64,000 nt of DNA from Humibacter sp. RRB41 (GTDB lineage: Bacteria > Actinomycetota > Actinomycetes > Actinomycetales > Microbacteriaceae). How positions within the stretch are numbered: the stretch's first letter is position 1; every line of letters begins with the position of its first letter. The stretch spans positions 496,001 to 560,000 of the forward strand of contig NZ_JAKWJQ010000002.1 in the NCBI RefSeq assembly GCF_022761015.1. Reading direction: 5' to 3'. Under the pieces are notes generated by a model that worked only from the letters and a program-made list of their open reading frames with translations, had not been told where the DNA came from and did no database searches. The position numbers and the translations under genes are program-made. Of this stretch, positions 284-18,032 are shown piece by piece.

Positions 284-289
284 CCGGGC

Positions 290-718: not shown

Positions 719-722
719 AGGC

Positions 723-867: not shown

Positions 868-910
868 CTGACACCTTGCGGTGACGCTAGTCTACGTGAT
901 GAGTGGTGCA

Positions 911-3418: not shown

Positions 3419-3548
3419 CAGACCCCTTCCCCTTCACGACGACCACCATCTGCTTCACGACACTCACGACCAGCAAAGCCACCACCGCAACGATCACGAT
3501 CGCCAGCCCGGCGGCGAGCACCCACAACAACAGCACCCATGGGCTCAT
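3408..3548 (-). CDS. 46-residue single-pass membrane protein
   Basis: After MSPW comes one long hydrophobic stretch (about residues 5-38) made of Leu, Val, Ala and Ile, then a short basic tail (KGKGSGDR). It overlaps the downstream gene by 11 bases, and its ATG shares a base with the upstream stop. It is too short for most gene finders. Small phage membrane peptides of this kind are often unassigned. A holin is unlikely this early in the operon. Confidence 0.6.
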   Translation of the reverse strand: MSPWVLLLWVLAAGLAIVIVAVVALLVVSVVKQMVVVVKGKGSGDR

Positions 3549-3892
3549 CAGAACCGCTCCCCCGGCTGCTCCCACGGCTCCGCATCCGGCGCCGACGCTG
3601 CTGGGGCTGAGATGTGCTCGATCAGGCGAGCACCATTCAGCGACACATCCGCGACCGGGAACGCTTCACCCTCATCCGGCGTGACCATGCGTCCTCGAGA
3701 TGATGCGAACCCTGATGCTGAGATCACATCGCCCGGCTCGATGTCTGGCTTCTCTTTGAACCACAACGTCACCCAGCTCTTCCGCTCCGGGCCATCCTTG
3801 GGCGTATACGTCTCGTACACTGCCGCGCCCCATGTCCCGTGCTTCGTCTCGAACACTCGATCAACGTGTGCCCGCTCAACGGTTGCCTTCAT
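3548..3892 (-). CDS. OB-fold-like single-strand-binding candidate
   Basis: 114 residues. The pattern of beta strands with WVTLWFKEKPDIEPGDVISA and GFASSRGR resembles the OB-fold of single-stranded-DNA-binding proteins, and the tail is acidic and Pro-rich (DAEPWEQPGERF), as in SSB C-termini. It lies directly downstream of the helicase gene, where phage SSBs are often found. The assignment is by pattern and context, not by a family-defining motif. The ATG at 3892 is chosen because upstream residues are not plausible. Confidence 0.5.
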   Translation of the reverse strand: MKATVERAHVDRVFETKHGTWGAAVYETYTPKDGPERKSWVTLWFKEKPDIEPGDVISASGFASSRGRMVTPDEGEAFPVADVSLNGARLIEHISAPAASAPDAEPWEQPGERF

Positions 3893-3921
3893 TGCGTGTT
3901 TCCTTCCCAGAATTGAGGCGA

Positions 3922-5121: not shown

Positions 5122-5798
5122 TCGTCGACGCCGAAATCATCGCCGGTCACACCAGGACGATCATTCCGCTCGGGAAGCAGCTCGTCATCCCAGCTGCCAC
5201 GGTTCAGCCACGTCATCGGATGCGGGATGAACTTCTTCTCCGGCAGATTCGGGTCCGCCGCGAACCGACGAGCACCCTCGAGGATCACCTCCGAACCGAC
5301 ACGCTTCGCCGCCTTGACGAACGCACTCCGAGCACCCTCCTTAGCGACCTTCCTCGGGTACATAGACCAGAACGAATCGAACGCATCAGTCACCGGATTT
5401 ACGTCTATACGTATAAGAGAGGTGTGAACCGACACCGTGTCGGGGAATAATGACTCCGCTGTCGGGGAATCCGAACCATTCCCCGACACTTTGTCGGTGG
5501 AAGTTTGGGCCCACGGAACAGCTATCGCGAACTCATTCGGCCGGCTCTTCGAGCCCTTCGCGTGTGTCAACAGACCTCGATGGCGGAGACTCGGAATCAG
5601 CCTCTCGATCGTCCGTCGATCCACTCGCACCTTCCGCGCGAGCCCGTCATACGTGAGATCGTCCTCATTTGCCATGAACCTGCATCGCCCGTTGTCGTCG
5701 GCCACATCGGCCAACGCGAGCAGCAGGATCATCTCGTTCCCGTTGAGCTTGGCAGTCGCACTGTCATGCCAAACCCAACTGGACACCTTCACACTCAA
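5103..5798 (-). CDS. Phage replication initiator, winged-helix
   Basis: 231 residues. The N-terminal part has a winged-helix layout (LARKVRVDRRTIERLIPSLR followed by GLL), as in phage replisome organisers. The C-terminal part carries the pattern FDSFWSMYPRK, with AFVKAAKR and FIPHPMTWLNRGSWDDE, that I associate with lambda O-like and DnaD-like loaders. Its place directly upstream of the helicase gene fits origin recognition and helicase loading. The phage origin may lie within or near this gene, but no iteron array was found by eye. Confidence 0.75.
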   Translation of the reverse strand: MSVKVSSWVWHDSATAKLNGNEMILLLALADVADDNGRCRFMANEDDLTYDGLARKVRVDRRTIERLIPSLRHRGLLTHAKGSKSRPNEFAIAVPWAQTSTDKVSGNGSDSPTAESLFPDTVSVHTSLIRIDVNPVTDAFDSFWSMYPRKVAKEGARSAFVKAAKRVGSEVILEGARRFAADPNLPEKKFIPHPMTWLNRGSWDDELLPERNDRPGVTGDDFGVDEWMMRA

Positions 5799-5926
5799 TC
5801 GCTCTCCTTGTCGAAGTCGCCGCGCTCGATGCGCCGCAACAATCCCTCGTACACCGCAGCCACCAACGGCTTCCCGGTCGCGGCACGCTCACCCAGCCAC
5901 GTCTTCAGACGCTCGCCGTCGATCAC
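5795..5926 (-). CDS. 43-residue hypothetical phage protein
   Basis: A GTG start at 5926 overlaps the upstream stop as GTGA and follows the GGAGG of GGAGGACCA. The product begins MIDGERLKTWLGERAATGKP and is helical. Its stop overlaps the ATG of the initiator gene (ATGA). No function is known. Confidence 0.6.
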   Translation of the reverse strand: MIDGERLKTWLGERAATGKPLVAAVYEGLLRRIERGDFDKESD

Positions 5927-6123
5927 TGGTCCTCCTCGCACGCGCACGGCTTCACAAGCCAGCACACCTGGCACACGTCCGCGGCCTCCGCGTTCCGCAA
6001 CGCCCACGGCTCGCACTCGAGATGCACAACCTCGTCATCGACGAACACGACCAGCTGACCCGGCATGACCTCGGCGCCGCAGCCTCCGCACTTCCCGCCG
6101 TAACGGGCCTGGAATGCGCTCAT
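5923..6123 (-). CDS. Small zinc-binding phage protein
   Basis: 66 residues with three Cys pairs: CGGC near residue 12, then CQVCWLVKPCAC near the C-terminus, plus a His/Cys pair (HLEC). This is consistent with two zinc sites. The ATG at 6123 overlaps the HNH gene stop (ATGA). Proteins of this type are frequent in actinophage early operons and are uncharacterised. Confidence 0.7.
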   Translation of the reverse strand: MSAFQARYGGKCGGCGAEVMPGQLVVFVDDEVVHLECEPWALRNAEAADVCQVCWLVKPCACEEDQ

Positions 6124-6530
6124 GCCGCCTGCTCCCATCGTTCATACTCATCCGGGTATATATCCGTCATCAGTGCTCGTGCGGCAGCAGTCGAGATCCA
6201 CTCCCGACCACCGTCCAGGCGGAGCAGATGCCAACCGCCCAGCAGCGGATACCGCACCGGCACGGCGCCAGCACCGAACCGATCAGCCGCCCAGCCGCGC
6301 ACCTTCCACCCGTTCAGCAGCGCCCGCTCTTGCAGGTGAGCCTCGAAGCTGTCGTTGCAGAGCACGCACGCCGTCACCCCGTCGGACACGGTCGGCTTCA
6401 GCTTTGAGCCGCCCATGCCGACCGCTGAGCGGTGCTGGAATTCCAGTGGCGACCGGTGACCGCAGGCGACGCACTGTCGGCCGTCACGGGCATACACGGC
6501 CGCTCTGACACTCGCTGTGGGGGCGGTCAT
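6120..6530 (-). CDS. HNH-like endonuclease
   Basis: 136 residues. The N-terminal half holds an HNH-type zinc core: C20-x2-C23 (QCVACGHRSPLEFQHR, His33), then a GMGGS turn and a second Cys pair CVLC in TACVLCNDS. This matches HNH nucleases of phages and homing elements. The C-terminal half is a Trp-rich extension. It is not next to a terminase gene here, so a role in packaging is less likely than one in DNA processing. The rightward gene at 6561 starts just upstream in the opposite direction. Confidence 0.75.
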   Translation of the reverse strand: MTAPTASVRAAVYARDGRQCVACGHRSPLEFQHRSAVGMGGSKLKPTVSDGVTACVLCNDSFEAHLQERALLNGWKVRGWAADRFGAGAVPVRYPLLGGWHLLRLDGGREWISTAAARALMTDIYPDEYERWEQAA

Positions 6531-6560
6531 GCGATCACCAGCACCGATAGAGTGCGAGCC
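6528..6560 (+). promoter_or_regulatory. Moron promoter cassette, copy 1
   Basis: CATGCGATC, then ACCAG, then the -10 hexamer TAGAGT at 6548-6553, then GCGAGCC and the GTG at 6561. Copy 2 before the gene at 7360 shares CATGCGATC, ACCAG and TAGAGTGCG, and copy 3 before the gene at 9257 is more diverged. The spacing predicts a leaderless transcript. No convincing -35 box is visible. Confidence 0.6.
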
Positions 6561-7184
6561 GTGCTGATTCCGTCGCCCACTTCATCGCTGCAGGACATTC
6601 GCGTGGACGTCCGTGACTTCCCGATGGATTGGTGGACATTCGCGCTTACGGGGCTTGGAATTGTTGCCACGGTAGCGATTGCACTACTTACGCTTCGCGC
6701 GACGCGGATCGCCGAAGCGAGCCGAACGACGGCGGATGCCGCGCAGACTCGAGCTCTCGAGGCATATGTGGCTGCTCTGAACACGTCAGAAACTGCAACC
6801 AATGGACAGATCCGAGCTATCGAGGCGCTCGTCGAGAGGGTGAACGGCGCGGTGCAGACGCCCGAGACCGAAACAGCGTCGGACTCAGAACCTAAGGACA
6901 CCGTCATGTGGAGCCTCGAGCGAGACAGCGGTGCCGGAAGAGGGAGATGGATGGTTCGCAACGTTGGAACCGCCATCGCGCGCGCAACATCACTGCACGG
7001 TCTAACGGACATCGATAACCGTGATCTATATGTCTTCGGCGACCAACCTCGCGACCTCGACCAAAATGGCTTTATCCAATTCTCGATAGAGCGCAGCATG
7101 GCGAGCCCGCCGGCGACTGTAGTGGTCCTCGATTGGACTGACGCCTTCGGCAAGTTCGAAGAAACACGGATGGTCGTCGCGTAA
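6561..7184 (+). CDS. Single-pass membrane protein with beta-rich tail
   Basis: 207 residues from the GTG that follows the TAGAGT box. An ATG at 6624 (MDWWTFALTG) would still keep the membrane segment. One hydrophobic segment (FALTGLGIVATVAIALLTL) is followed by a helical linker (about 45-100) and a C-terminal beta-rich domain with RWMVRNVGTAIARAT and VVVLDWTDAFGKFEETR. The protein at 9257 has the same plan and matching motifs (RWLLINTSPTKA, YIDWTVADGS). The gene opposes the early operon and is clearly AT-richer (7021-7080 is about 48% GC by count, against 70% at 9001-9060), suggesting separate acquisition. A role in superinfection exclusion or envelope modification is inferred only. Confidence 0.75.
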   Translation: MLIPSPTSSLQDIRVDVRDFPMDWWTFALTGLGIVATVAIALLTLRATRIAEASRTTADAAQTRALEAYVAALNTSETATNGQIRAIEALVERVNGAVQTPETETASDSEPKDTVMWSLERDSGAGRGRWMVRNVGTAIARATSLHGLTDIDNRDLYVFGDQPRDLDQNGFIQFSIERSMASPPATVVVLDWTDAFGKFEETRMVVA

Positions 7185-7327
7185 TCTTCCGAATTCGCGC
7201 CGCACCGTTCCATCAACCTGAAGTGATGCGCAAGCTGCAAGTGCTTCACGCTGCACCGTCCATCTCGATGAGGTCGAACAACGACTTTGTTCGAGCACTT
7301 GGGCTGCGCGTCGCACTTGGGGATAAC

Positions 7328-7359
7328 CATGCGATCTTCACCAGGCATAGAGTGCGGCC
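7328..7359 (+). promoter_or_regulatory. Moron promoter cassette, copy 2
   Basis: CATGCGATC, TTC, ACCAG, then TAGAGT at 7348-7353, GCGGCC and ATG at 7360. It is nearly the same string as copy 1 with small indels. No leftward gene starts here, so the shared CATGCGAT is not explained by a start codon alone. Confidence 0.6.
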
Positions 7360-7593
7360 ATGGCGATCAACAGGCAGTACCTGACCGATGCTCGGACGTA
7401 TTGGCAGCAGTCGTACGACGCGATCTACTCCGCTCAGGAGGGAAGCCGACCGATCCAGAAGAGACTCGATGACGCCATCTCCGGCCTCGACCACTGCCAT
7501 ACCGCAATCGACGATCTGATCCATTGGGCAGAGCAGGCTACTCGAGAGCTTGAACGACTGGGCGTCTCGATCGAGAGCGCAGAGATCGACTGA
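7360..7593 (+). CDS. Small helical moron protein
   Basis: 77 residues, all helical and soluble, with two amphipathic segments (YWQQSYDAIYSAQ and SGLDHCHTAIDDLIHWAEQA). No known family was recognised. It follows the membrane protein gene at 6561 after a 175-base gap and has its own TAGAGT box. It ends two bases before the convergent stop of the methyltransferase gene. It may act with its membrane-bound neighbour, but that rests only on position. Confidence 0.7.
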   Translation: MAINRQYLTDARTYWQQSYDAIYSAQEGSRPIQKRLDDAISGLDHCHTAIDDLIHWAEQATRELERLGVSIESAEID

Positions 7594-7595
7594 AG

Positions 7596-9230
7596 TCACG
7601 CCGCCACCCCCAGAGCGTCGACGCAGACGGCGACGAGGTCGCGTGCGGCTGGCGGTGTGACAGCGTTCCCTGCTGCTTTCACGAGGTCGCGGTTCGAGAC
7701 CGGCTTGAGTCGGTCGATGGGCTGCCACTTGTAGTCGGCGGGGAATGCCATGCCTGCGGCGACCTCGCGCGGCTGAAACATGCGGAACAGCACCTCAGGC
7801 ACCATCTCCTCGGCCGCGCGCAGGTCGGCCACTGTGACCGGTCGCCGCGGCTGCTGCAGAACGGATACGTTGCCGCGCGTGGTGAGCGTGCGCATGTACT
7901 CGGAAGCGGGCGTCGTCATCTCTGCACCTCCTTCGTTGTGCCGGTGGATCAGCGCGTCGTGGATGCCTCCCGCCGCAGTCGTGGTGAGCGGTTCGTGCTC
8001 CGGGTCGGACGGCACGAGGCGGTCGCGCTCGTAGTGCATGACCAGCCCGTGATGGTTGCCGCCGGCGGTGAAAGTCCCCGCGGGTTCATCCACGGGTCGA
8101 GCCGTCGACGTGCCGTACATCTCGGCGATGAAAGGCATGTGCGCGAGCGCGGTCTCGGCGCGCGTTGTCTGTGCGCGCATCGGCACGTCGACCGGTGAGG
8201 CGACCTTCCCGTCACGTCCCTCGACCGGCACCGCGAGTGCTTTCGAGTTCGTCGTGTGCAGCGCCCGCAGCGGCTCGCCTACCGGCCAGATTCGGTAGTA
8301 CCCGCCCGGGTCACCGTGCGCAACGTGGTGCGGATCGGCAGCGTCGTACGTGTTCCCCGCCGCCTCGAGCGTCAATGGTCCCCAGTAGCGTGCGATGCCT
8401 GCAGCGATGCGCGCCCGGGTCTTCGGCTTGAGCCGGTCCCCGATGCGCTCACCAGGAAGGCTCCAGTCGATCGCCGCGGCGGCGGGCAGCCAGCCGGGTT
8501 CGACGATGCCGCCACAGCTCGAGCAGCAATACACGTACGCCTGCCGATACCGGCCGACCGTCTTACCCGGCTTGAACGACTGGACCGACTCCGCGACCAC
8601 GTCGCACTTCGGGCAGTATGCGCGCGGCCGGAGAATCCGATCCAGGTCCGGTGCCTTCGCGCCTTCCGGCCACGCCACCACGTAGATGCGGTCGCGTGAC
8701 TGCGGGGCTGGTGCGCCGAACGTCTGCGCGTGCATCGAGTTCAGGCTGACGACCCGGAACTGATAGCCGAGTGCCCGCAACTCCTGCCGCCACACCGTCC
8801 ACGCGGTGCGGTACTTCGCCTGCGTGGCAATGTCGACGACGTTCTCCACGATCACCAACCGGTACTGGTGGTACTCGATGAAGCGGAGCACGTCGAACAT
8901 CAGCAGCCGGGACCGGTTCTTCGCGTCATCCGACAGCGGATCCTCGAATAGGCCTTCCTCGATCGCGGGCAGCTTCGCACCGTTCGCCTGCGACCACTTC
9001 GTGCACTCCGGGCTCGCCCAGAGCATGTCCGTGCGCGGGAAGAACGACGGCCGCTCCTGATGCAGGTCCACAACCGCGTGATCCGTCGTCGGGTGATTCA
9101 AGGCATGGATGTCGGTGACGAGCTGCCAGTGATTCGCGGCAATGCGCACGTGCACACCGGGCACCTGGATCGCTCCCGTGCTCGATCCGCCGGCGCCAGC
9201 GAAGAGGTCAGTCACCGTAACCCCGCTCAT
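7596..9230 (-). CDS. DNA (cytosine-5) methyltransferase
   Basis: 544 residues with the ordered C5-methyltransferase motifs: motif I DLFAGAGGSSTGA (8-20), motif IV ASPECTKWS with the probable catalytic Cys76, motif VI VIVENVVD (about 127-133), motif VIII QSRDR (177-181) and a late motif X AAGNAVTPPAARDL. Motif IV has SPEC in place of PCQ, as in one phage subfamily. A four-Cys insert (CPKC at 206-209 and CCSSC at 235-239) forms a probable zinc ribbon before the target-recognition part. No cognate restriction enzyme is next to it, so it is probably an orphan enzyme that protects phage DNA. The ATG at 9230 places motif I at the usual distance. Confidence 0.92.
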   Translation of the reverse strand: MSGVTVTDLFAGAGGSSTGAIQVPGVHVRIAANHWQLVTDIHALNHPTTDHAVVDLHQERPSFFPRTDMLWASPECTKWSQANGAKLPAIEEGLFEDPLSDDAKNRSRLLMFDVLRFIEYHQYRLVIVENVVDIATQAKYRTAWTVWRQELRALGYQFRVVSLNSMHAQTFGAPAPQSRDRIYVVAWPEGAKAPDLDRILRPRAYCPKCDVVAESVQSFKPGKTVGRYRQAYVYCCSSCGGIVEPGWLPAAAAIDWSLPGERIGDRLKPKTRARIAAGIARYWGPLTLEAAGNTYDAADPHHVAHGDPGGYYRIWPVGEPLRALHTTNSKALAVPVEGRDGKVASPVDVPMRAQTTRAETALAHMPFIAEMYGTSTARPVDEPAGTFTAGGNHHGLVMHYERDRLVPSDPEHEPLTTTAAGGIHDALIHRHNEGGAEMTTPASEYMRTLTTRGNVSVLQQPRRPVTVADLRAAEEMVPEVLFRMFQPREVAAGMAFPADYKWQPIDRLKPVSNRDLVKAAGNAVTPPAARDLVAVCVDALGVAA

Positions 9231-9256
9231 GCGATTGCCCAAGCTAGAGTTCGTGC
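9228..9256 (+). promoter_or_regulatory. Moron promoter cassette, copy 3
   Basis: CATGCGATTGCCC, then TAGAGT at 9245-9250, TCGTGC and ATG at 9257. The -10 hexamer and its distance from the start match the other copies. The upstream half is shorter by three bases. The CAT is also the start codon of the leftward methyltransferase gene. Confidence 0.5.
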
Positions 9257-9805
9257 ATGTTCCTTGCCGACGGCACCGACCTCTGGGGTGTGGCCATCCC
9301 CGGATGGATTGGTGCTATTGGCACGGTTGGCGCGTCGATCATCGCAGTGATCGGTCTCCTCCTGGGCCGCGGTGCCAGGCAAGGAGTCAAGCAGCTCGCC
9401 GAAGACAGCAATCGAAACGTGAACAACGGCGCCGACCAGGATCGCCGAAACGTTGGGGAGGTCCATGCTGTCCTTCCCTTGATTCAAGGAGACATCTCCG
9501 GGGATAACGAGCCGGAGCCGGAACGAGCGACGTCTCTTGGCGTTACGTGGAGGCTCGAGCAAAGACCGAATCAGCGCTGGCTGCTTATCAATACGTCGCC
9601 CACCAAGGCGCTCATCATCAACGTCCAGTGCTCCGACAACATCGATGTCACGATCGAGGCCACGCTTCCTGCCGACGTCCCACCGGGCGCCGCATTCGCG
9701 TTCACTGCACACCGGAAACTTGGCCTGAACCCCGTCGCGTCCCTGTACATCGACTGGACTGTGGCTGACGGGTCGTCCGACTCCGCAACCTTCTACCTGC
9801 TCTAA
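9257..9805 (+). CDS. Single-pass membrane protein, paralogue-like of 6561
   Basis: 182 residues. After a short N-terminus, one membrane segment (WIGAIGTVGASIIAVIGLLL) is followed by a basic and acidic linker. A C-terminal beta-rich domain contains TWRLEQRPNQRWLLINTSPT, then AAFAFTAH and SLYIDWTVADGS. The order and the two landmark motifs match the protein encoded at 6561, although overall similarity is low by eye. It ends 18 bases before the convergent stop at 9823. It is probably expressed in the lysogen from its own leaderless promoter, with the domain on one side of the membrane. Orientation cannot be read with confidence. Confidence 0.75.
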   Translation: MFLADGTDLWGVAIPGWIGAIGTVGASIIAVIGLLLGRGARQGVKQLAEDSNRNVNNGADQDRRNVGEVHAVLPLIQGDISGDNEPEPERATSLGVTWRLEQRPNQRWLLINTSPTKALIINVQCSDNIDVTIEATLPADVPPGAAFAFTAHRKLGLNPVASLYIDWTVADGSSDSATFYLL

Positions 9806-9822
9806 CGTGAGGTGCTCGCTCA

Positions 9823-10632
9823 TCAGGCACCGACCTTGATCGTGATCGTGACCGACTGGCCGACAGCCACCTGCACCGGGGCAGGCAGCAAGCCCAACTT
9901 CGGCACCGCCGGCTCGAACTCACTCATCGCACGCAGGTCCGCGTTCTCACGCTCGAGCTCCACGATCCGCTTCTGCCGCGTCGTCGCGCGATCAGACCAA
10001 TCCGCGACCGACTCACGGAGACCACGCAGCTCGGATTCCATCGCACCCCACACGTCGGCCGACGCAGTGAACGGCTCCACGTCGACGACCTCAGCCAGCG
10101 CGACTGCGTCCTCCGAAAGCTTCTCAACTGAACCAGCGATGTCGTCGTGCGCGAACGCCTCCTCCACGGCACGCTTCTTCTCGGCCTCCGCCTTGCGACG
10201 CGCCGTGTTCGACTTCTGGTGCGCGTTGATCGCGTCCTTGCACGGCCGGCATGCCTCACCGTTCGTCCTCTTGCACCGGTAATAGCCGCTCGCCGTGCCA
10301 TGCGGAATGCCATCCGCAGGCTGAAGCGTCACCGGCAGCTCAGACTCAGGCACGGCAGGCATCTCTACCTCGACGATCTTCTTCACGATCGGCTCCTCAC
10401 TCGGCTTCACGCCCCCGCTCTTCACCCGAGGGGTGAACTCCTCGGCACCCGGGAACTCGCCCCGAGCACACGCCGCCGCGAACTCCGCATCCCACGCCGC
10501 ACGCGTCTTCGCCTCACGACACGACAGACCCCGCTCGACCTTCGCCGGGCACGCACCCCCACGGCACCCGCGCTCGAAGCCCTGCGGTGTCCCATGCGGG
10601 AACCCGTCCTCGAACAGATCCGCGGCGCTCAT
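9823..10632 (-). CDS. Phage protein with two HGTxxGY-Cys repeats
   Basis: 269 residues. Two similar Cys motifs occur: FPHGTPQGFERGCRGGACPA near the N-terminus and IPHGTASGYYRCKRTNGEAC, then RPC, near residue 125. Such HGT-x2-GY modules recur in actinophage proteins and probably bind zinc. A central helical part (RRKAEAEKKRAVEEAF) leads to a coiled coil (ATTRQKRIVELERENADLR) and a beta-rich Pro tail. No activity is known. The ATG at 10632 overlaps the upstream stop (ATGA). Confidence 0.7.
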   Translation of the reverse strand: MSAADLFEDGFPHGTPQGFERGCRGGACPAKVERGLSCREAKTRAAWDAEFAAACARGEFPGAEEFTPRVKSGGVKPSEEPIVKKIVEVEMPAVPESELPVTLQPADGIPHGTASGYYRCKRTNGEACRPCKDAINAHQKSNTARRKAEAEKKRAVEEAFAHDDIAGSVEKLSEDAVALAEVVDVEPFTASADVWGAMESELRGLRESVADWSDRATTRQKRIVELERENADLRAMSEFEPAVPKLGLLPAPVQVAVGQSVTITIKVGA

Positions 10633-10979
10633 GCTCGACCACTCCTCGCATATGCCAGTTCCCCTTCGAGGCGAACCGCGATGCGACGTGCGCGCTCGGT
10701 CTTGTCTCGCTCCATCTCTAGAGCGCCCGAGAAGATCGACGCGGCTATCTCCGCCTGATGCTGGTAATGCACCAGCTCGAGCCGTGAGGCGGCCAGCTCG
10801 GCGCGGAGATTGCCCTCCGTCACCTGTGACCACTCCGGACGCTCCGCGAGCCCTCGACGGATCTCCTGCAACATCGAGATCACACCCGACGTCAGAAGTG
10901 CTCCCTGCGCACCGAAGTGCAGTTCCCCGATCGCACCATCCAGATAGGCGAGAACACCCTCAACACCACCGTCAATCAC
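10629..10979 (-). CDS. Hypothetical phage protein
   Basis: 116 residues, helical, starting at a GTG (10979) that overlaps the upstream gene by eight bases. It contains Arg- and Glu-rich helices (ELAASRLELVHYQHQAE, MERDKTERARRIAVRLEGEL). No family was recognised. Confidence 0.6.
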   Translation of the reverse strand: MIDGGVEGVLAYLDGAIGELHFGAQGALLTSGVISMLQEIRRGLAERPEWSQVTEGNLRAELAASRLELVHYQHQAEIAASIFSGALEMERDKTERARRIAVRLEGELAYARSGRA

Positions 10980-11220
10980 GAGTCACCGCCGCAGCGAAAG
11001 CATTACCGAACGCGTTCACGAGAGAGGCGAGCACCTTCGCTGCCTCACCGAAGTAGCGACCCACCGCCGCCCACGACTCCCGCAGCTCACGCGCTGCTCG
11101 CTCCTCTGGCGACTCCGGCCGAGGCTCTCCCCGCAGCTCCGCGATCGCGACATCGAACCGGTACTCGGCACGCCCCAGGCACCGCTGCACGGCCCGCTCT
11201 ACCTGCTCCTCCGGGCTCAC
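10972..11220 (-). CDS. Hypothetical phage protein
   Basis: 82 residues, strongly acidic and basic helices (SPEERAARELRESWAAVGRY) and a hydrophobic C-terminal helix. The GTG start overlaps the J-domain gene stop as GTGA. Function unknown. Confidence 0.6.
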   Translation of the reverse strand: MSPEEQVERAVQRCLGRAEYRFDVAIAELRGEPRPESPEERAARELRESWAAVGRYFGEAAKVLASLVNAFGNAFAAAVTRD

Positions 11221-11891
11221 AGCAGTCCTTCCTCGCGGAGCTTCGCCTCAGCGAGCGTCACCCGCTGGAACATCGCCGCATCGCCGCCTGTGTCCGGGTG
11301 TGCTTCTCGCTGCGCTCGACGGAGCGCACGACTCGGCGCGCCAGCGATGAGACGCATCTCAGCATGGCCAAGACCGATGAACTTGCCGAGGAACGCGAGC
11401 GCATCGTCGGTGGTCGCGAACCCGCCCGGGATCGCCGTCGCCTCGAGTGCGAGGAAGCCGCGGTACTGCTCGCCGTGCGACGTCACCCCGTACCGGTCGA
11501 CCTTCCGCAGCGCCTCAAGCGCGAGAGCGATCGCGCGCAGGTTGTCCGTCCACGTCGTGAACGTGTCGCACGGATACGACAGGTCGCCCAGCTTCGTCGT
11601 GAACGACAAGATCACACCCGAATGCTCAGCCTTCGCCTGCGCACGCGGCTTCCCATCGAGCCGGAAGTCCGCCGGCGAAATCGCCACCAGCATCACCTGG
11701 TTCGTCGCGCCGAGCATCCGCAGCTCGCGATCGAGCAACTCGAGCGTTGACCACAACGGCACTGAGCGCCGCCTGTACGAATCGAACTCGCTCGTCTTGA
11801 ACGGTGCGACCTTCTTACGCGACTGCGGCGTCAACTCCCCCGGCCACTCCCTGATCGGACCGACATCCAGCCGGTCTGGCCACTCGCTCAT
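11217..11891 (-). CDS. Phage protein with C-terminal J domain
   Basis: 224 residues. The last 40 residues match helices II-III of a DnaJ J domain, with RALRRAQREAHPDTGGD holding the HPD triad at about 198-200, followed by MFQRVTLAEAKL. The HPD loop is what stimulates the ATPase of DnaK. The first 185 residues are a separate domain I do not recognise (HSGVILSFTTKLGDLSYPCD, FTTWTDNLRAIALALEALRK). A phage protein that recruits host DnaK to replication or DNA-bound complexes is plausible. Helix I of the J domain is not obvious, so this may be a shortened form. Confidence 0.75.
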   Translation of the reverse strand: MSEWPDRLDVGPIREWPGELTPQSRKKVAPFKTSEFDSYRRRSVPLWSTLELLDRELRMLGATNQVMLVAISPADFRLDGKPRAQAKAEHSGVILSFTTKLGDLSYPCDTFTTWTDNLRAIALALEALRKVDRYGVTSHGEQYRGFLALEATAIPGGFATTDDALAFLGKFIGLGHAEMRLIAGAPSRALRRAQREAHPDTGGDAAMFQRVTLAEAKLREEGLL

Positions 11892-12046
11892 CGGACGTCC
11901 TCCGCATCCTTTGACAGCGGATCGCCCGCATCATCCAACCGGCGGAAAAACCGCAACATCGCGGCCACCACCACGGCGACGAACGCGGCAAGCACAACAG
12001 CCCCACCGACGACCAACGCCAACACGAACACCAATTCCTCAGGCAT
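11888..12046 (-). CDS. 52-residue single-pass membrane protein
   Basis: The product starts MPEELVFVLALVVGG and has one membrane segment (about 5-30), then a basic and acidic tail (RFFRRLDDAGDP). Its stop overlaps the ATG of the J-domain gene (ATGA), and GAGAGGG precedes its own ATG. It resembles the 46-residue membrane peptide at 3408 in plan but not in sequence. No function is known. Confidence 0.6.
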   Translation of the reverse strand: MPEELVFVLALVVGGAVVLAAFVAVVVAAMLRFFRRLDDAGDPLSKDAEDVR

Positions 12047-12058
12047 TCCGAATCCCTC

Positions 12059-12541
12059 TCAAGCCGTCCGTGCGTGGAACTGATCCGCCGCACGCCTATC
12101 CGCATTCACGCTCTGCCACACCTTGATCTGGTCAGCCATCGTGTCCAGCCGCTTCCTCGCCAGACGCTCACGCTGCTCAGCGACCCGATACCGCAGATTC
12201 GCCTGCTGCACCTCATCCGTCGCCTCAGCGCGTCTCGTGCACATCTCCCCCGACCGCTCACCGTCATCCCGAAACCGGATGACCGCCTTCGCGACCTTCG
12301 CCTCGTACTCCGACTTCGCCACCGCGAACTCATCGCCTGCCTTCTCGAACGCCCACGAGTACACCCACCGCATCGCCGTGAACCGGATGCCGTCTGGCTC
12401 TCCCCGGGTCCGACGGAGCGCATCGACAAGACGTCGATGCAGCTCGTCCGTCGGATCAGGTGAGTAGATGCCAACCTCAGCCAACGCATCGATGACATCG
12501 GGCTCCAGCGGGGCGGTGCCCGGCTCCATCTCGACAGCCAT
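12059..12541 (-). CDS. Hypothetical phage protein
   Basis: 160 residues, helical, with a long basic and acidic helix (QQANLRYRVAEQRERLARKR) towards the C-terminus. It starts one base after the RecT stop. Its position in the recombination block suggests DNA metabolism, but no motif supports this. Confidence 0.65.
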   Translation of the reverse strand: MAVEMEPGTAPLEPDVIDALAEVGIYSPDPTDELHRRLVDALRRTRGEPDGIRFTAMRWVYSWAFEKAGDEFAVAKSEYEAKVAKAVIRFRDDGERSGEMCTRRAEATDEVQQANLRYRVAEQRERLARKRLDTMADQIKVWQSVNADRRAADQFHARTA

Positions 12542-12542
12542 C

Positions 12543-13508
12543 TCAGATCAGCTCGTCCGGGTTGCCCTCGCCGGGCGTCGCCGTCGGCCACTCCGTCACA
12601 GGCTCTTCGACGACCTCGGCATCCACCACGTCGTCGTCCGACTTGGTCTCTTCTGCCGGCGTGACATCAGGCTCCGGGAGGTGCTCGCGCAACTGCCAGA
12701 ACACCTGCTTCACCGACGGACCATCCGGCCCGTCTGTCGCCGCCAGGTTCAGCTCGCCAGCCGACTCCGCTTCCGCATAGAGAGCACGCAACGTGTCCCG
12801 GTCGCGACACCTCGACGCCAGACCCACCCAGTCACGCGATCGCGTCGGCGCCGGCGGCTCAGGCCGACGAGCAGGCTCCGGTGCGTCCTTCGCGGGCGCA
12901 GCCTGATCCATCTCCTCCGTGCCATAGATGCCGGAGAGGTCCTGCGGGAACGCCTTCCGCAACCCGAGCATCTCAGCGCACTTCGCCAACTGATTCGACG
13001 AGTTCGCAGCCCATTGACCGGACGGCTTCGCGTTCCCATCCCGATCCCTCGGGACATACCCGGAATAGGTCGCCACAGCCCACACAGGCTCCGTGAACCC
13101 CCGACGGTAGATGCCAACCCGCGCAGCCGCAGGCGGCGTCGTAGCCAGCCACACGTCCAACCACGTGACACCATCAGCCGTCCACTGCACCGGCGTCTGC
13201 CCGGTGTATTCCTTCGACCGCTCAGCGATCAATCGGAACCCATCGATCGAGGCCTGAATGCCCCACTTGCCGCCGCGCTCGATGCAGTAGATCTGCCGAG
13301 CCACAGGGTCCAACCCAGTGCGGCGGATCTGGTAGAGGAACGCCTCCACGATCGACTGCGGCGCCTCGAACGTCTCCTTCGTCCACGAGCTACCTCGCTT
13401 CACGTTCTTCTCGCCACGCAGCCCGAGCGACTCCATGAGCGCCGTCTGTTGCGGGTTCCACGCCTGCTTGTCCGCCGACTGCGGCAAGAGCGCAAGTGCG
13501 TCCGTCAT
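12543..13508 (-). CDS. recT: RecT-family single-strand annealing protein
   Basis: 321 residues from the ATG at 13508. The core carries RecT signatures: IVEAFLYQIRRTGLDPVARQ, then GKWGIQASIDGFRLIAERS, and later NQLAKCAEMLGLRKAFPQDL followed by GIYG. The last 100 residues are a Pro- and Asp-rich tail, more variable in the family. RecT anneals complementary strands resected by a partner exonuclease. The YqaJ-type nuclease gene two genes upstream is that partner. The pair gives the phage its own homologous recombination, useful for circularisation or repair of its DNA. Confidence 0.92.
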   Translation of the reverse strand: MTDALALLPQSADKQAWNPQQTALMESLGLRGEKNVKRGSSWTKETFEAPQSIVEAFLYQIRRTGLDPVARQIYCIERGGKWGIQASIDGFRLIAERSKEYTGQTPVQWTADGVTWLDVWLATTPPAAARVGIYRRGFTEPVWAVATYSGYVPRDRDGNAKPSGQWAANSSNQLAKCAEMLGLRKAFPQDLSGIYGTEEMDQAAPAKDAPEPARRPEPPAPTRSRDWVGLASRCRDRDTLRALYAEAESAGELNLAATDGPDGPSVKQVFWQLREHLPEPDVTPAEETKSDDDVVDAEVVEEPVTEWPTATPGEGNPDELI

Positions 13509-13897
13509 GCCGCCATCTCCTTCTTGACCCACGGCAACCGAAGCGTCGTGAACCCCTGATCGCGGCACGCGGCCGCATACCCCTGCTCAACGATTCCCGC
13601 AGCCGCGAGAGCGTCGATGATCGGCACGACCTTCTCCTGGAAGCCCTGGATCGGATGATCGATGTAGAGGTGGAAATGCCCCGGCGTGCTCGACGGGAAC
13701 ACCTGCACCGGAAGGTCGATGTCGAGCAGCAACTTGTGCACGCCATCCCCCAGATCCGACGTCTTCGACGTGATCGCGTTTGCTTCGTCGATGTCGTCGG
13801 TCCGCTCAAGCGACGCGAGCACGTCGTACCCGCTGTCAAACCGCACACTCTTGAGCAGCACCTGACCCAGCATCGGGTTGTTGTGGTTCGTCGTCAC
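13505..13897 (-). CDS. Hypothetical protein between nuclease and RecT
   Basis: 130 residues from a GTG that overlaps the exonuclease stop (GTGA). It has alternating strands (KLLLDIDLPVQVFPSSTPGH, FHLYIDHPIQGFQEKVVPII). Proteins with this HFHLYIDHP pattern occur in actinophage recombination cassettes. I do not know a function. It overlaps RecT by ATGA, so the three products are probably made together. Confidence 0.65.
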   Translation of the reverse strand: MTTNHNNPMLGQVLLKSVRFDSGYDVLASLERTDDIDEANAITSKTSDLGDGVHKLLLDIDLPVQVFPSSTPGHFHLYIDHPIQGFQEKVVPIIDALAAAGIVEQGYAAACRDQGFTTLRLPWVKKEMAA

Positions 13898-14901
13898 TTC
13901 GTCGCTCCCTTCACACCCGTCACCGTCAGCCGGCCCGGCTTCGACTTCGTCACCGTCCGCTTGAACAGCGCCTGATGCTCGTTCCACCGCTTCGACAACG
14001 ACTGCACCTCCGCGAACAACTCCGGATCAGCGTCCTTCGCCGCCTGCACATCCGGCTCCTCGACATCGGCGTCATCGCCAGGCGTCCACGACACCTGAGC
14101 CATCGACGACTTCTGCGAGAACGGCTTCTCCCCCATCCGCGACGTCAACGCAGACCAGGCCTGTTCCTTCGCCTTCTTTGCGTCCGACTCCGCCTCACGG
14201 AACCGCAGGACATCGACCGCGAAGGTGTCGAGCTCCTCGTCGACATCCGGCTTTCCGTCGGAACGCTGACGGTCCAGCTCCTCGAGGAACTCATCCGCCT
14301 TCGCCACCAGGTCATCGATGAGGAAGTCGTCGCGCTGCAGCCAATACCGGTGCAGCTCTCCCGCCGTGAACGATCCGTCTGGGAGCTCGATGCGCTCCTC
14401 GACCACGAACCGGCAACCGGTCGCACCAATCACGTACATGACCCACTGGCACTGGATCGCGTACCCCTTCTTCGCCATGTGCGGGGACCCCGGCGGCAGA
14501 TCCTCCCAGCACGTCTTGATCTCCGACACCTGCAGCTGCTCGTCGAAGTCGAGCCGGATGCCGTCAGGCGATGCCAGGTGCCGCGCATTCGACGGATGCC
14601 GGAATACACGCGACTCCGGCTCGAAGCCCTCGCCACGGAGACGCTCAGCAATGACCGGCTCGCGCGTTCTCCCCCAGCCAATGACCGGCACGTGCGAGAG
14701 ATCAGGTGTCGGCTCGTCCGACAGCTTCTCGTTGATCAGGGGCTGCATCGACTTCGCGCCGATGACCAGATCCCGGACCTCCGTCGCCGTGATCCCACGA
14801 CGACGCTCTGCAAGCCATGCCAGCCTGTCCGTATCGGACGCGCCCGCCCGAGACTCCAGCTCGGCCAGAACGGCCGGCACGCTCACATCAGTCATGGTCA
14901 C
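13894..14901 (-). CDS. YqaJ-type viral exonuclease
   Basis: 335 residues. The N-terminal 200 residues show the lambda-exonuclease (YqaJ) core: GITATEVRDLV, GWGRTREPVIAERL (catalytic region), ASPDGIRL with Asp113, SEIKTC with Glu127 and Lys129, and YAIQCQWVMY. Together these form a PD-(D/E)XK nuclease site. It should degrade one strand of linear double-stranded DNA and feed RecT. The C-terminal third is acidic. The start may be the GTG at 14901 (overlapping the upstream stop as GTGA) or the ATG at 14895. Confidence 0.9.
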   Translation of the reverse strand: MTMTDVSVPAVLAELESRAGASDTDRLAWLAERRRGITATEVRDLVIGAKSMQPLINEKLSDEPTPDLSHVPVIGWGRTREPVIAERLRGEGFEPESRVFRHPSNARHLASPDGIRLDFDEQLQVSEIKTCWEDLPPGSPHMAKKGYAIQCQWVMYVIGATGCRFVVEERIELPDGSFTAGELHRYWLQRDDFLIDDLVAKADEFLEELDRQRSDGKPDVDEELDTFAVDVLRFREAESDAKKAKEQAWSALTSRMGEKPFSQKSSMAQVSWTPGDDADVEEPDVQAAKDADPELFAEVQSLSKRWNEHQALFKRTVTKSKPGRLTVTGVKGATK

Positions 14902-15269
14902 GCCGCGTCGCCGCCGTCGAAGTCATCGTCGCCGCGACCTGCGTTCAGGTCGAGCACCGCGGCGCCCTTCACCGGCTCAGGGATGTCCAGCTGTGTCCTC
15001 CCCGTCCTCGCCGACGCCAGATCGAACAGCTTGTTCAGCAGCACCTGCGCCTCAGCTTCATCAGCCACCGGCTCGATACGCGTGATCTGCGCCGTCGCCG
15101 TAACCTTCCCCGACGCGAAGTCCGTGTCCTTCTTCGCCGTCACGAACGTGATCACCGCGACGTGCTGCTTCTGCGGATCATCCAGCAGACGATTCGCCCA
15201 CTCAGATCCGGCCAGCCCATTCGCCTCGTCATCCTTCGGAAGCGCGCCCTTCAACTTCGTGTCACTCAT
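14898..15269 (-). CDS. Hypothetical protein of the recombination block
   Basis: 123 residues from the ATG at 15269. The centre reads as beta strands (HVAVITFVTAKKDTDFASG, VTATAQITRIEP), suggesting a small beta barrel, and the tail is acidic (GRGDDDFDGGDAA). An acidic tail and beta core next to an exonuclease would fit a single-strand-binding protein, but no SSB motif was found. Function unknown. Confidence 0.6.
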   Translation of the reverse strand: MSDTKLKGALPKDDEANGLAGSEWANRLLDDPQKQHVAVITFVTAKKDTDFASGKVTATAQITRIEPVADEAEAQVLLNKLFDLASARTGRTQLDIPEPVKGAAVLDLNAGRGDDDFDGGDAA

Positions 15270-15484
15270 CGCTCGTATCCCTCCGTGCTCAGGCCGCGCG
15301 CCTCGAGCGCCGCGGCACGCTTCTTGTTCGATCGCGAGCGGAACTCGCTCGAATGCCGAGTACCGAACGCACCCGGGACGTTGGCCTGGAACCAGGCGCG
15401 CTCCGTGATCGGAGTGCCCACCTTCGGCTTGTGCTCGAACTTCACTCCGCCGCGCTTCCGCGCCTTCCTCGCCGCCGTCGACAT
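15266..15484 (-). CDS. Small basic phage protein
   Basis: 72 residues, very basic (AARKARKRGGVKFEHKPK, RSRSNKKRAAAL). It may bind nucleic acid by charge. The ATG overlaps its upstream neighbour's stop. No family was recognised. Confidence 0.6.
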   Translation of the reverse strand: MSTAARKARKRGGVKFEHKPKVGTPITERAWFQANVPGAFGTRHSSEFRSRSNKKRAAALEARGLSTEGYER

Positions 15485-15699
15485 CAGAACGGCTTCCAAC
15501 CGTTCGAGTGCGACGAGTACCGCGCAATGAGGTGCTCACCCGGAACCTCGGCCTTCACGCCGTGCTCCCACTCGATGAGGAACTTCCCCTCCGACCCCGT
15601 CATCCGCTGCGGCGCTTCGAGCACCTTCCGGACCTTGCCCCGCACGCGCCCCGTCGCCGCATCCGCGACGTTCGAGTGCACCTTCAATGCCAAGCTCAC
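15484..15699 (-). CDS. Hypothetical phage protein
   Basis: 71 residues from a GTG that overlaps the resolvase stop (GTGA) and follows GGGAGAA. It has a beta pattern (GKFLIEWEHGVKAEVPGEHL). The longer upstream reading lies inside the resolvase gene and is not used. Function unknown. Confidence 0.6.
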   Translation of the reverse strand: MSLALKVHSNVADAATGRVRGKVRKVLEAPQRMTGSEGKFLIEWEHGVKAEVPGEHLIARYSSHSNGWKPF

Positions 15700-16265
15700 G
15701 ACCGTTCTCCCTTCGCAATGGGCCAGTGCACGGCCCGCACACTGTCCCGCCCAGACGACGCGAACCCGCCGCCAAACTCGATGCCCAAATGCGCGGCGCC
15801 AATCGCCGCAAGGGCCGCCGCATCCGCGACGTCGTTGTTCCTGATCTCCCCCGCCGGGAACGCCCTGATGGCGGCCGCGAGCATCTCGTCCTTGCCAGCC
15901 CGACCATTCCCAGTCGCGAACTTCTTGAGCATCCCCGGCTGCACCACAGCGACCGGTGCGATCTGCTCCAGCCCGTGCACCAGCAGCCACCAGAACCCGG
16001 CCAGCATGTGCGTCATCTGGTTGTTCGACCCGTACGCCGGGCCCTCGATAACCACGAGAACGACAGTCGACTTCGAGGCGGCAGCTCCCAGCTCCACGCT
16101 GCGGACCACACCGATCGCCTGCCGACGCAACCGCTCCAGCCGAGCCGACAACGCGTCGCCCGCCGGCTTCGACTGCACACGGTCGAAGCGCTGCGTGTGC
16201 TCGCCCAGATGGACGACGCCGGTCGAACTGATCGACGGGTCAACCCCTGCCACCGCGGCGCTCAC
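15696..16265 (-). CDS. RuvC-like Holliday junction resolvase
   Basis: 189 residues from the GTG at 16265. The RNase-H fold motifs of RuvC are in order: AGVDPSISSTGVV with Asp9, VLVVIEGPAYG with Glu74, KKFATGNGRAGKDEM, and NNDVADAAALAAIG with Asp145 and Asp148. These acidic residues match the metal-binding set of RuvC. Phage RuvC-like enzymes cut branched DNA formed during replication and recombination, which fits the nearby exonuclease and RecT genes. Confidence 0.88.
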   Translation of the reverse strand: MSAAVAGVDPSISSTGVVHLGEHTQRFDRVQSKPAGDALSARLERLRRQAIGVVRSVELGAAASKSTVVLVVIEGPAYGSNNQMTHMLAGFWWLLVHGLEQIAPVAVVQPGMLKKFATGNGRAGKDEMLAAAIRAFPAGEIRNNDVADAAALAAIGAAHLGIEFGGGFASSGRDSVRAVHWPIAKGERS

Positions 16266-16558
16266 CGGACACTCCCGAACGGAAGCCACTCGAACAGATC
16301 ACGCAGCGCCATCTCCGCCTGCTCGCACTTCGTGCACGTCAGTAACTGACTCAGTCGACGTGCCCTCGCGGCAGCAACCAGGATCAGGTCGAAGCATCTC
16401 TGCGAGCACGCCGTCTCGACGCCGCACCGCAGGCAGCGGAAAACGCCCACCGCCGGCGCCTGGCACTCCGGCATGTCCGACGGATGCATTTCGCACGAGA
16501 GGTCAAAGTCGAGCAGTGAAAGAACGTCGACATCAGATGAGGCATCAGTCGTCGGCAT
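16262..16558 (-). CDS. Cys-rich phage protein
   Basis: 98 residues with several Cys pairs (FRCLRCGVETACSQRC, then LTCTKCEQAEM), so it probably binds zinc. It overlaps the resolvase gene as GTGA. No family was recognised. Confidence 0.65.
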   Translation of the reverse strand: MPTTDASSDVDVLSLLDFDLSCEMHPSDMPECQAPAVGVFRCLRCGVETACSQRCFDLILVAAARARRLSQLLTCTKCEQAEMALRDLFEWLPFGSVR

Positions 16559-16742
16559 CGTCGTCCTCCATCAGGAGACGCACACCGATCGCGATGACCA
16601 GGCAACCAAGTGCCACAGCCACGCACACCGTCAGCAGCCAAAGCCCCAGCACCGCGGACACGAGCATCCCGGCCAGCGAGGCGACGAACACTGACCACCA
16701 GACGACGCGGACGGTCAGGACTCCGCGCTCCTCGCGGCTCAC
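16545..16742 (-). CDS. 65-residue two-pass membrane protein
   Basis: Two hydrophobic stretches (about 10-32 and 34-54) end in an acidic tail (MEDDDADD). The GTG start overlaps the upstream stop as GTGA. Function unknown. It is one of several tiny membrane proteins in this early operon. Confidence 0.6.
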   Translation of the reverse strand: MSREERGVLTVRVVWWSVFVASLAGMLVSAVLGLWLLTVCVAVALGCLVIAIGVRLLMEDDDADD

Positions 16743-17266
16743 GACGCAACCGCCTCAGCGCCGACAAGCAGCGACGCCAACCTGTGCGCCACAAGCCCCG
16801 TCGCGAGCTCGTTCGCGTTATCCGCTTCCTGCTCGCGCGAGATCCGATTCAGACCGGCCATCACCGCATCGAAGTCCCGGCCACGCCACACCCGGAACGC
16901 CGACTCGATCAGCTCCCGATCGTCCTCGACGTACGCGTTCACCATCCGCAGATCGCCAGCCAACGGCTGCACCATCTTGATCGGATCGAACCCGTAACGC
17001 TCCCGATACGTCCTCGCGACCACCTTCGGGAACGAACCCATCGCATGCGCCAAACGCGCACCCCTCAAACCCTTCGCCGAGAGGAACTCCGCCAACTCGA
17101 GCGGCCGCATCTCCGACCGCTCGAAGACCGCCCTCGCCCGCTCCGCTAGCTCCCACTCCGGGACCAGCCCGCGAGCCTCCTGCAGCTCGCGCAGCATCTC
17201 CATTGCCTGCTTCACCGTGATCGCCCTTCGATCGATGTGATGTCTGATGGGGACCGCGGCCGACAT
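16739..17266 (-). CDS. Hypothetical early phage protein
   Basis: 175 residues from the ATG at 17266, which has no clear ribosome site. A GTG at 17215 preceded by GAAGGG would give 158 residues. It is helical, with LAEFLSAKGLRGARLAHAMG and MVQPLAGDLRMVNAYVEDD. It is the second gene of the leftward operon, where phages often encode regulators or antirepressors, but no motif supports that role here. Confidence 0.65.
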   Translation of the reverse strand: MSAAVPIRHHIDRRAITVKQAMEMLRELQEARGLVPEWELAERARAVFERSEMRPLELAEFLSAKGLRGARLAHAMGSFPKVVARTYRERYGFDPIKMVQPLAGDLRMVNAYVEDDRELIESAFRVWRGRDFDAVMAGLNRISREQEADNANELATGLVAHRLASLLVGAEAVAS

Positions 17267-17289
17267 GGGGGGATGCCGGCCACGGCCGT

Positions 17290-17565
17290 CTACGCCGCTC
17301 GCGCTCGATCAACCCGCTGTTCGTCACGCGCCGGGAAGAACCTCGCCACGTCCACGTCCCACGCGTCGGCAAGCCGAAGCAGCTCAGGACCCGTGAACGG
17401 GATGCGACCGAGGAACCGCTGATTGACTGACTGTCGAGAGATCTCGAGAACCGCTGCGACTGCCTTCTGGTCCTTGCGCTTCTCTGCTGCGATGCCACGC
17501 ACCCTGTCGGCAATCACTGTCAGCTCGTCCTGCATGTCCGCCACTGTGACAGGATTCCATGTCAT
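17290..17565 (-). CDS. Cro-like HTH regulator
   Basis: 91 residues with one XRE-type helix-turn-helix (IAAEKRKDQKAVAAVLEISR, then QSVNQRFLGRIPFTGPELLR), followed by LADAWDVDVARFFP as in many phage repressors. It is the first gene of the leftward lytic operon and is divergent from the repressor-like gene at 17669, the place where Cro is found in lambdoid-like phages. The first codons overlap a candidate operator. Other starts are possible at 17571 and 17535. Confidence 0.8.
   Translation of the reverse strand: MTWNPVTVADMQDELTVIADRVRGIAAEKRKDQKAVAAVLEISRQSVNQRFLGRIPFTGPELLRLADAWDVDVARFFPARDEQRVDRARAA
17547..17564. promoter_or_regulatory. Candidate operator inside the Cro-like gene start
   Basis: TGACAGGATTCCATGTCA has inverted TGACA/TGTCA ends around a GGATTCC core and overlaps the first codons of the Cro-like gene. 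The core recurs in the palindrome at 17620-17639 in the opposite orientation (GGAATCC). Confidence 0.4.
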
Positions 17566-17619
17566 GCGCAAGCAGCATTGACGCCGTGTCTCGCCGTCCT
17601 GACAGCTTCCCGTAGCAGA

Positions 17620-17639
17620 CTGTCGGGAATCCTTGACAG
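17620..17639. promoter_or_regulatory. Candidate operator over the repressor promoter
   Basis: CTGTCGGGAATCCTTGACAG is a CTGTC/GACAG palindrome with a 10-base centre. It covers the -35 box of the rightward promoter, so binding would control the repressor-like gene. A further GACAG half-site lies at 17601-17605. Confidence 0.5.
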
Positions 17640-17661
17640 AACGTCAGATAATCCGTACGCT
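17633..17661 (+). promoter_or_regulatory. Consensus promoter of the repressor-like gene
   Basis: A perfect -35 TTGACA (17633-17638), a 17-base spacer and a -10 TACGCT (17656-17661) end seven bases before the ATG at 17669. The transcript should therefore begin at or next to the start codon (leaderless). Confidence 0.75.
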
Positions 17662-17668
17662 CAGGTTC

Positions 17669-17998
17669 ATGACGAATGTAGTTCCAAGCACTACCGCAGA
17701 CGCCATCCAGCACGCACGTGCCGCACACCTTCGCGACCTCTTCGAGCCGTGGTCCCTCCGCAAGCTCGAGACACGCACGGGCATCGGACGCGGTGTCCTT
17801 GAGACCCGATTCAAGGGCACCACCGCACTCACGATGGCCGACATCGAGATCCTCGCGCCCGTCATCCGCATGGCCCCAGAAGAGCTCTTCGCCGAGCTAC
17901 TCGCGATCAATCCGGACAACAAAAAAGGCCCAGCCTCCGAAGAGACTGGGCCAAAGAAGCTCCCCGTGGTGGACTCGAACCACCAACCTGCCGGTTAA
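17669..17998 (+). CDS. Repressor-like HTH protein running into tRNA-Asn
   Basis: 109 residues from the ATG placed by the promoter. Residues about 15-65 form an XRE-like helix-turn-helix (LRDLFEPWSLRKLETRTGIG, then RGVLETRFKG). From about residue 84 the frame reads through the tRNA-Asn terminator, and from about 98 through the antisense of the tRNA itself (LPVVDSNHQPAG), stopping in the anticodon loop. Thus the gene's 3' end is made of attachment-site DNA. In mycobacteriophages BPs, Brujita and Charlie, attP lies inside the repressor gene and integration changes the repressor C-terminus. The same layout, with no integrase beside the tRNA, is seen here. Whether the viral form differs cannot be told from this window. 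Confidence 0.8.
   Translation: MTNVVPSTTADAIQHARAAHLRDLFEPWSLRKLETRTGIGRGVLETRFKGTTALTMADIEILAPVIRMAPEELFAELLAINPDNKKGPASEETGPKKLPVVDSNHQPAG
17921..17952 (-). terminator. Intrinsic terminator of tRNA-Asn
   Basis: On the minus strand GGCCCAG pairs with CTGGGCC (17927-17933 with 17946-17952), followed by a run of six T. It lies eight bases past the tRNA 3' end. The same bases are read as codons of the repressor-like gene on the plus strand. Confidence 0.85.
17960..17998. other. Probable attachment-site core
   Basis: Phage and island integration into tRNA genes normally recombines within the 3' half, between the anticodon loop and the 3' end, so that the tRNA stays intact. The prophage lies on the 3' side of this tRNA, so this stretch is the expected core. 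The second copy must lie left of the window. The exact limits are inferred. Confidence 0.55.
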
Positions 17999-18032
17999 CA
18001 GCCGGCTGCTCTGCCAATTGAGCTAACGAGGA
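17960..18032 (-). tRNA. tRNA-Asn(GTT)
   Basis: 73 bases without an encoded CCA. The acceptor stem TCCTCGT pairs with ACGGGGA (one T-G wobble), the D arm holds TAGCTCAATTGGCAGAGCA, the anticodon loop is CTGTTAA (GTT), and the T arm holds GGTTCGAGTCC. The discriminator base is G. The prophage adjoins its 3' side. Confidence 0.95.

What the first reader, a model, noticed from the sequence alone, without database searches (positions are those of the whole stretch)
17547..18032. Repressor gene fused to the tRNA-Asn attachment site: candidate integration-dependent immunity
The rightward HTH gene at 17669 reads through the tRNA terminator and into the antisense of tRNA-Asn, stopping in the anticodon loop. 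No integrase lies between it and the tRNA. This is the layout of phages in which attP is inside the repressor gene (described for mycobacteriophages BPs, Brujita and Charlie), where integration changes the repressor C-terminus and so its stability. The sequence shows the fusion. The switch itself is inferred. It would be a further example outside the mycobacteriophages with a tRNA-Asn site.
Basis: partly seen in the sequence, partly recalled or inferred. Interest (0 to 1): 0.8.

Follow-up and report, generated by a model that had tools for sequence, protein, structure and literature searches.

The report
Phage repressor cut short by integration
When this phage inserts into the host's asparagine-tRNA gene it cuts 31 residues off its own repressor, and relatives with the same layout suggest that this cut makes the repressor stable, so that immunity switches on only after integration; the layout is a known type, here in a new lineage of phages.

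Summary
The window holds the right end of a complete 46.7-kb prophage. I found the left end in the same genome: a 39-bp exact copy of the tRNA-Asn core, with a tyrosine integrase 0.7 kb inside. Joining the flanks gives the phage form of the repressor: 140 aa, against 109 aa in the prophage. The prophage stop codon is created at the junction (TAC in phage, TAA in lysogen); its last base is bacterial. A second lysogen gives 150 vs 109 aa. A metagenomic phage contig shows the uncut arrangement directly: repressor, attP inside it, integrase 89 bp downstream. This is integration-dependent immunity, already described in mycobacteriophages, Gordonia, M. abscessus and Bifidobacterium phages. Extra findings: related integrases nearly all end in -AA; some viral-only repressor tails share a C-terminal A-V-[VI]-[TIS]-x-[LFI] peptide on unrelated DNA-binding heads (candidate non-ssrA degron); three repressor genes carry the tRNA's replacement terminator on the opposite strand. 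Instability of the long form is inferred, not shown.

The parts
17669..17998 (+). Immunity repressor gene, prophage (attR) form, 109 aa; residues 10-78 form an XRE/lambda-repressor type helix-turn-helix domain, residues 84-109 are a low-confidence, probably disordered linker
   Evidence: AlphaFold model; Foldseek best matches C.BclI, ClgR, lambda repressor, E 0.007-0.02, probability 1.00
17633..17661 (+). Putative Prep promoter TTGACA-17-TACGCT ending 7 nt before the ATG (leaderless mRNA), same spacing in four related phages
   Evidence: no consensus promoter found by the stricter scan
17290..17571 (-). Divergent Cro-like HTH gene (start codon uncertain)
   Evidence: PHROG transcriptional repressor 1.3e-05, HTH_3 below cut-off
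17927..17952 (-). Phage-borne intrinsic terminator for the reconstituted tRNA-Asn, on the antisense strand of the repressor codons for PASEETGP
   Evidence: -23.5 kcal/mol, z -6.0, followed by T6; conserved in two other phages with paired changes
17959..17997 (.). attR common core, 39 bp, exact copy at attL (contig C7 467307-467345)
17959..18032 (-). tRNA-Asn(GTT): 3' part from the phage core, 5' part from the host
1..17997 (.). Right part of the 46,691-bp prophage (C7 467307-513997); [quoted passage not shown]

Best explanation
This is an integration-dependent immunity module. In the free phage the repressor gene and, downstream on the same strand, an arm-less tyrosine integrase gene are probably read from one promoter, and attP (the 3' part of tRNA-Asn) lies inside the repressor gene. 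The phage-coded repressor is therefore 140 aa, with a 31-aa tail ending ...RDAVVTSITAAI. Integration into tRNA-Asn removes the tail: the first host base after the core turns TAC into TAA, leaving a 109-aa repressor. Shown: attL, attR, attB, both protein forms, gene order, integrase class, and the native attP form in a relative. Inferred: that the long form is unstable or inactive because of its tail, that the short form is the active one, and that the -AA end of the integrase sets the lysogeny frequency by proteolysis.
For: attL/attR exact 39-bp core and integrase 0.7 kb inside attL. attP form 140 aa vs attR form 109 aa. Second lysogen G228: 150 vs 109 aa, integrase 24 bp downstream. Native phage form in L033 with the integrase 89 bp downstream. 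Empty sites in three congeners. Closest integrases in phage records are those of Gordonia Wizard/Twister6/Jeanie/GMA5-type and cluster G mycobacteriophages, for which integration-dependent immunity is published (PMC5559632, PMC4557955). Nearly all related integrases of 45% identity or more end in -AA or -VA although their tails cannot be aligned. Same frame through the core, and no stop at the junction codon, in 22 of 22 loci. The phage-form stop overlaps the next start codon (TGATG).
Against: No experiment. The phage-form tail here ends in AAI, G228 in RARQ, L033 in PRAS: none is a canonical ssrA-like -AA. A 31-41 aa extension alone is what chance would give at this G+C content. The repressor has no detectable sequence relation to known repressors of this kind (hhalign probability 2.7%). 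In this phage two small ORFs lie between repressor and integrase, though GMA5 (PMC5559632) and M. abscessus prophages (PMC8092301) show similar insertions. The attP form of this phage was obtained by joining flanks, not by sequencing virions.
Confidence: 0.85

Rival explanations
1. Incidental fusion: an ordinary temperate phage whose repressor happens to end inside attP; both forms work equally and the tail is neutral read-through.
For: Tail length is what chance gives; no canonical -AA tag on this repressor.
Against: Frame through the core kept in 22 of 22 loci despite different HTH heads; tails end in A, S or G in 12 of 16 non-redundant cases (p 8e-6 against tail composition) and 6 of 16 share the motif AV[VI][TIS].[LFI], 2-6 residues from the end, with varying codons, 0 of 20000 shuffles; integrase degron-like ends conserved.
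Confidence: 0.08
2. The tail inactivates the phage form directly (blocks dimerisation or DNA binding) and not by proteolysis; integration releases an active repressor.
For: Non-ssrA tail with a conserved hydrophobic peptide; canonical tag absent.
Against: In BPs both forms bind DNA alike and the long one is degraded (PMC4557955); the modelled phage-form tail of L033 is low-confidence and without secondary structure; different heads carry similar tail ends.
Confidence: 0.15
3. The shared tail peptide is inherited with the neighbouring integrase module and has no role of its own (common descent, or a DNA-level function of the region). This concerns the tail motif only, not the immunity switch as a whole.
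For: Its carriers have related integrases; the motif was defined after seeing the tails; the second scan gave no further close relatives for an independent test.
Against: Codons vary synonymously, flanking residues cannot be aligned, and the motif keeps a near-constant distance from the stop.
Confidence: 0.3

Closest known systems
Integration-dependent immunity of mycobacteriophage BPs and cluster G, I, N, P relatives (PMC4557955, PMC9262239)
   Same: attP inside the repressor gene; integrase downstream on the same strand; divergent cro-like gene; junction base makes the stop codon; long phage form 136 vs short prophage form 103 aa (here 140 vs 109); related integrase
   Different: tRNA-Asn instead of tRNA-Arg; unrelated repressor sequence; tail without -AA; here the tRNA terminator lies inside the repressor gene
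Gordonia phages Wizard/Twister6/Nubi and cluster CW (Jeanie, McGonagall, GMA5) (PMC5559632)
   Same: closest integrases in phage records (about 36% identity); core read in the DSN frame; GMA5 has an extra ORF between repressor and integrase
   Different: tRNA-Arg or tRNA-Lys; repressor tails ending -AA
M. abscessus prophages MabB/C/H/K/N/O (PMC8092301)
   Same: stop made by the first bacterial base in several; some phage-form repressors lack ssrA-like tags
   Different: other hosts and other attB sites; repressors not compared here
Bifidobacterium prophages Bb423phi2 and 689b-1 (PMC6109161)
   Same: phage form rebuilt in silico from attL and attR
   Different: tRNA-Met, 18-residue tail with ssrA-like tag

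Membership tests
Integration-dependent phage immunity | attP core inside the repressor reading frame of the phage genome | tested here: met
   Rebuilt for this phage and G228; native in L033
Integration-dependent phage immunity | Integration gives a C-terminally shortened repressor through a stop at the junction | tested here: met
   TAC to TAA, 140 to 109 aa; TTC to TAA, 150 to 109 aa
Integration-dependent phage immunity | Tyrosine integrase downstream of the repressor on the same strand, attB in a tRNA gene | tested here: met
   empty tRNA-Asn sites. Co-transcription itself was not tested
Integration-dependent phage immunity | Divergent Cro-like gene next to the repressor | tested here: met
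Integration-dependent phage immunity | C-terminal proteolysis signal on the integrase (-AA type) | tested here: met
   Sequence only...LQHAA here, and -AA or -VA in nearly all relatives of 45% identity or more
Integration-dependent phage immunity | Destabilising C-terminal signal on the phage-form repressor (often but not always -AA) | tested here: inconclusive
   Ends ...TAAI, not -AA; non-AA members are known (PMC8092301); shared AV[VI][TIS].[LFI] peptide
Integration-dependent phage immunity | Short form stable and immunising, long form not | not testable with these tools
   needs in vivo assay
BPs repressor family (sequence homology) | Homologous repressor protein | tested here: not met
   hhalign probability 2.7%; only the general XRE/lambda-repressor fold is shared

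The most novel reading that the evidence does not exclude
Phages of this integrase clade, mostly aimed at tRNA-Asn, carry a new non-ssrA C-terminal degron (A-V-[VI]-[TIS]-x-[LFI] near the end) on the phage-only tail of interchangeable repressors, so that integration switches immunity on by removing a transferable peptide tag.
Probability: 0.35. Interest if true: 0.65.

Novelty: new member of a known kind. Interest (0 to 1): 0.5.

Why it matters
It extends integration-dependent immunity to a lineage of phages of Microbacteriaceae-type hosts aimed at tRNA-Asn, with two lysogens, empty sites and a native phage form to compare. Published members without an ssrA-like tag were left with 'presumably other signals' (PMC8092301); the shared tail peptide is a specific, testable candidate for such a signal. 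It also shows a repressor gene that codes on its other strand for the terminator of the tRNA gene it occupies.

Tried and rejected
Repressor protein search in GenBank phages: no match. Repressor search in genome contigs: none. Order-wide repressor profile search: only weak, partial hits besides the window's own. Operator palindromes between repressor and cro: not better than shuffles, so no operator is claimed. A shared 'VIPxR' motif in repressor and integrase tails was dropped because in the integrases it is the end of the conserved GTAF helix. A second integrase scan, meant as an independent test of the tail motif, brought only distant relatives with other tails, so the motif is not independently confirmed.

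Full report
Observation. The tRNA-Asn gene (anticodon GTT) is at 17959-18032 on the minus strand. The rightward reading frame from ATG 17669 is open up to TAA at 17996-17998, inside the antisense of the anticodon loop.

The other end of the prophage. A search of the window's own genome with the junction found one more copy of the core: 39 bp, exact, at contig C7 467307-467345; the window is C7 496001-560000. One of four tyrosine integrase genes in the genome lies just inside it, C7 468032-468868, 278 aa. The prophage therefore spans C7 467307-513997, 46.7 kb. It carries large terminase, portal, head protease, major head protein, tape measure, minor tail, RecE, RecT and DnaB-type genes, so it looks complete.

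Phage form against prophage form. Joining the left flank of attR to the right flank of attL gives the attP sequence. The repressor then reads 140 aa, with the tail ..DSNHQPAG|YMPAPIRLVPRPHDAPVRTRDAVVTSITAAI. In the prophage it is 109 aa, ending ..DSNHQPAG. The core ends at TA; the phage continues with C (TAC, Tyr), the host with A (TAA, stop). That host base is complementary to U35, the middle base of the anticodon. The phage-form stop overlaps the start of the next ORF (TGATG), followed by a second small ORF and the integrase, all in one direction.

Independent cases. A metagenome-assembled genome of the same genus (G228, JAATFB010000050.1) has a related prophage at tRNA-Asn with a 38-bp core: phage form 150 aa, prophage form 109 aa, integrase start 24 bp after the phage-form stop. 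A viral contig (L028, IMGVR_UViG_3300010214_000036) has the same repressor, cut at the prophage stop, and an integrase at its other end. A further viral contig (L033, IMGVR_UViG_3300037324_000010) holds the intact phage form: repressor, attP core inside it, 28-aa tail, integrase 89 bp downstream. Three congeners without the prophage have an intact tRNA-Asn there; the ABC-transporter neighbour is the same in all three, and the sulfurtransferase-side flank is recognisable in at least one.

The repressor. Profile searches find nothing firm, but the AlphaFold model of residues 10-78 is a five-helix domain with pLDDT about 90. Its best PDB matches are C.BclI, ClgR and lambda repressor (E 0.007-0.02, probability 1.00). 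The linker and the phage-only tail are predicted unstructured. A promoter TTGACA-17 bp-TACGCT ends 7 nt before the ATG, with the same spacing in four phages, which implies a leaderless message (inference). The divergent gene at 17290-17571 is a Cro-like HTH protein.

The integrase. It has only a core-binding (SAM-like) and a catalytic domain, as in the arm-less integrases of such systems. Its nearest relatives in GenBank phages are those of Gordonia Wizard/Twister6/Nubi, cluster CW, and cluster G mycobacteriophages, groups for which integration-dependent immunity is published (PMC5559632, PMC4557955). A scan of viral and genome contigs gave some 40 loci. Nearly all integrases of 45% identity or more end in -AA or -VA, although the tails vary in length and cannot be aligned. 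In BPs the integrase carries a C-terminal proteolysis signal (PMC4557955).

A clade aimed at tRNA-Asn. In 22 loci with the core upstream of the integrase, the same frame crosses it (..LPxLDSNxxPxG), and in none is the codon that tRNA-Asn would turn into TAA a stop; 21 of the 22 cores match tRNA-Asn at 29 or more of 36 positions. Where the repressor is contiguous, its DNA-binding head differs between phages. The frame and junction are thus kept while heads are exchanged.

The phage-only tails. Some end in -AA (L105, L107, L108). Others, this phage included, share A-V-[VI]-[TIS]-x-[LFI] 2-6 residues from the end: 6 of 16 non-redundant tails, 0 of 20000 residue shuffles, none in the other two frames, with synonymous codon differences. 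The motif was defined after looking, and a second scan gave no close relatives for a fresh test. I regard it as a candidate degron, not a proven one. Published systems include repressors without ssrA-like tags (PMC8092301).

The terminator. The hairpin at 17927-17952 is on the phage side and is a strong terminator for the tRNA strand (-23.5 kcal/mol, z -6). It is encoded opposite the repressor codons for PASEETGP and kept in two other phages with paired base changes. The host's own terminator is displaced to attL. Integration thus brings both the 3' part of the tRNA and a new terminator. L033 lacks this hairpin, so it is not essential to the system.

Verdict. The anatomy meets the tested criteria of integration-dependent immunity; stability and activity of the two forms remain to be measured. 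The kind of system is known; this lineage, its tRNA-Asn preference and the tail motif I did not find described in the library searched (open-access papers only).

Noticed in passing
L029:3200-3300 and L030:9771-9900 (G228): In the second lysogen the ABC-transporter gene lies on the attL (tRNA 3') side, whereas in the other four congeners it lies on the tRNA 5' side; a local inversion around tRNA-Asn, or an assembly error in this metagenome bin.
   Followed up: partly
window 29569-29660 (+): ARAGORN reports a tRNA of undetermined identity with a four-base anticodon (gcga); probably a tRNA-Ser-like gene or false positive.
   Followed up: no
window 11384-11675: The only stretch of the window's prophage part with DNA similarity to GenBank phages: a DnaJ-like gene, 78-79% identical to Microbacterium phages Casend, Phinky and others.
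   Followed up: no
L154 (Curtobacterium phage Barebow, PQ868957.1): An isolated Microbacteriaceae phage with the same layout: HTH gene running into a tRNA-like core (VRSKGLEPPTFCS), tail ending RRAS, integrase directly downstream; a possible laboratory model.
   Followed up: partly
G000 C7:9294-9797, C11:88128-88679, C14:60970-61224: Three further tyrosine recombinase genes in the host genome, some perhaps of other integrated elements.
   Followed up: no
L227:2574: A more distant phage with the same LDSNQQP core frame and a tail containing QVIDMTAR and AAVVGMHAR, possibly a divergent form of the tail peptide.
   Followed up: no
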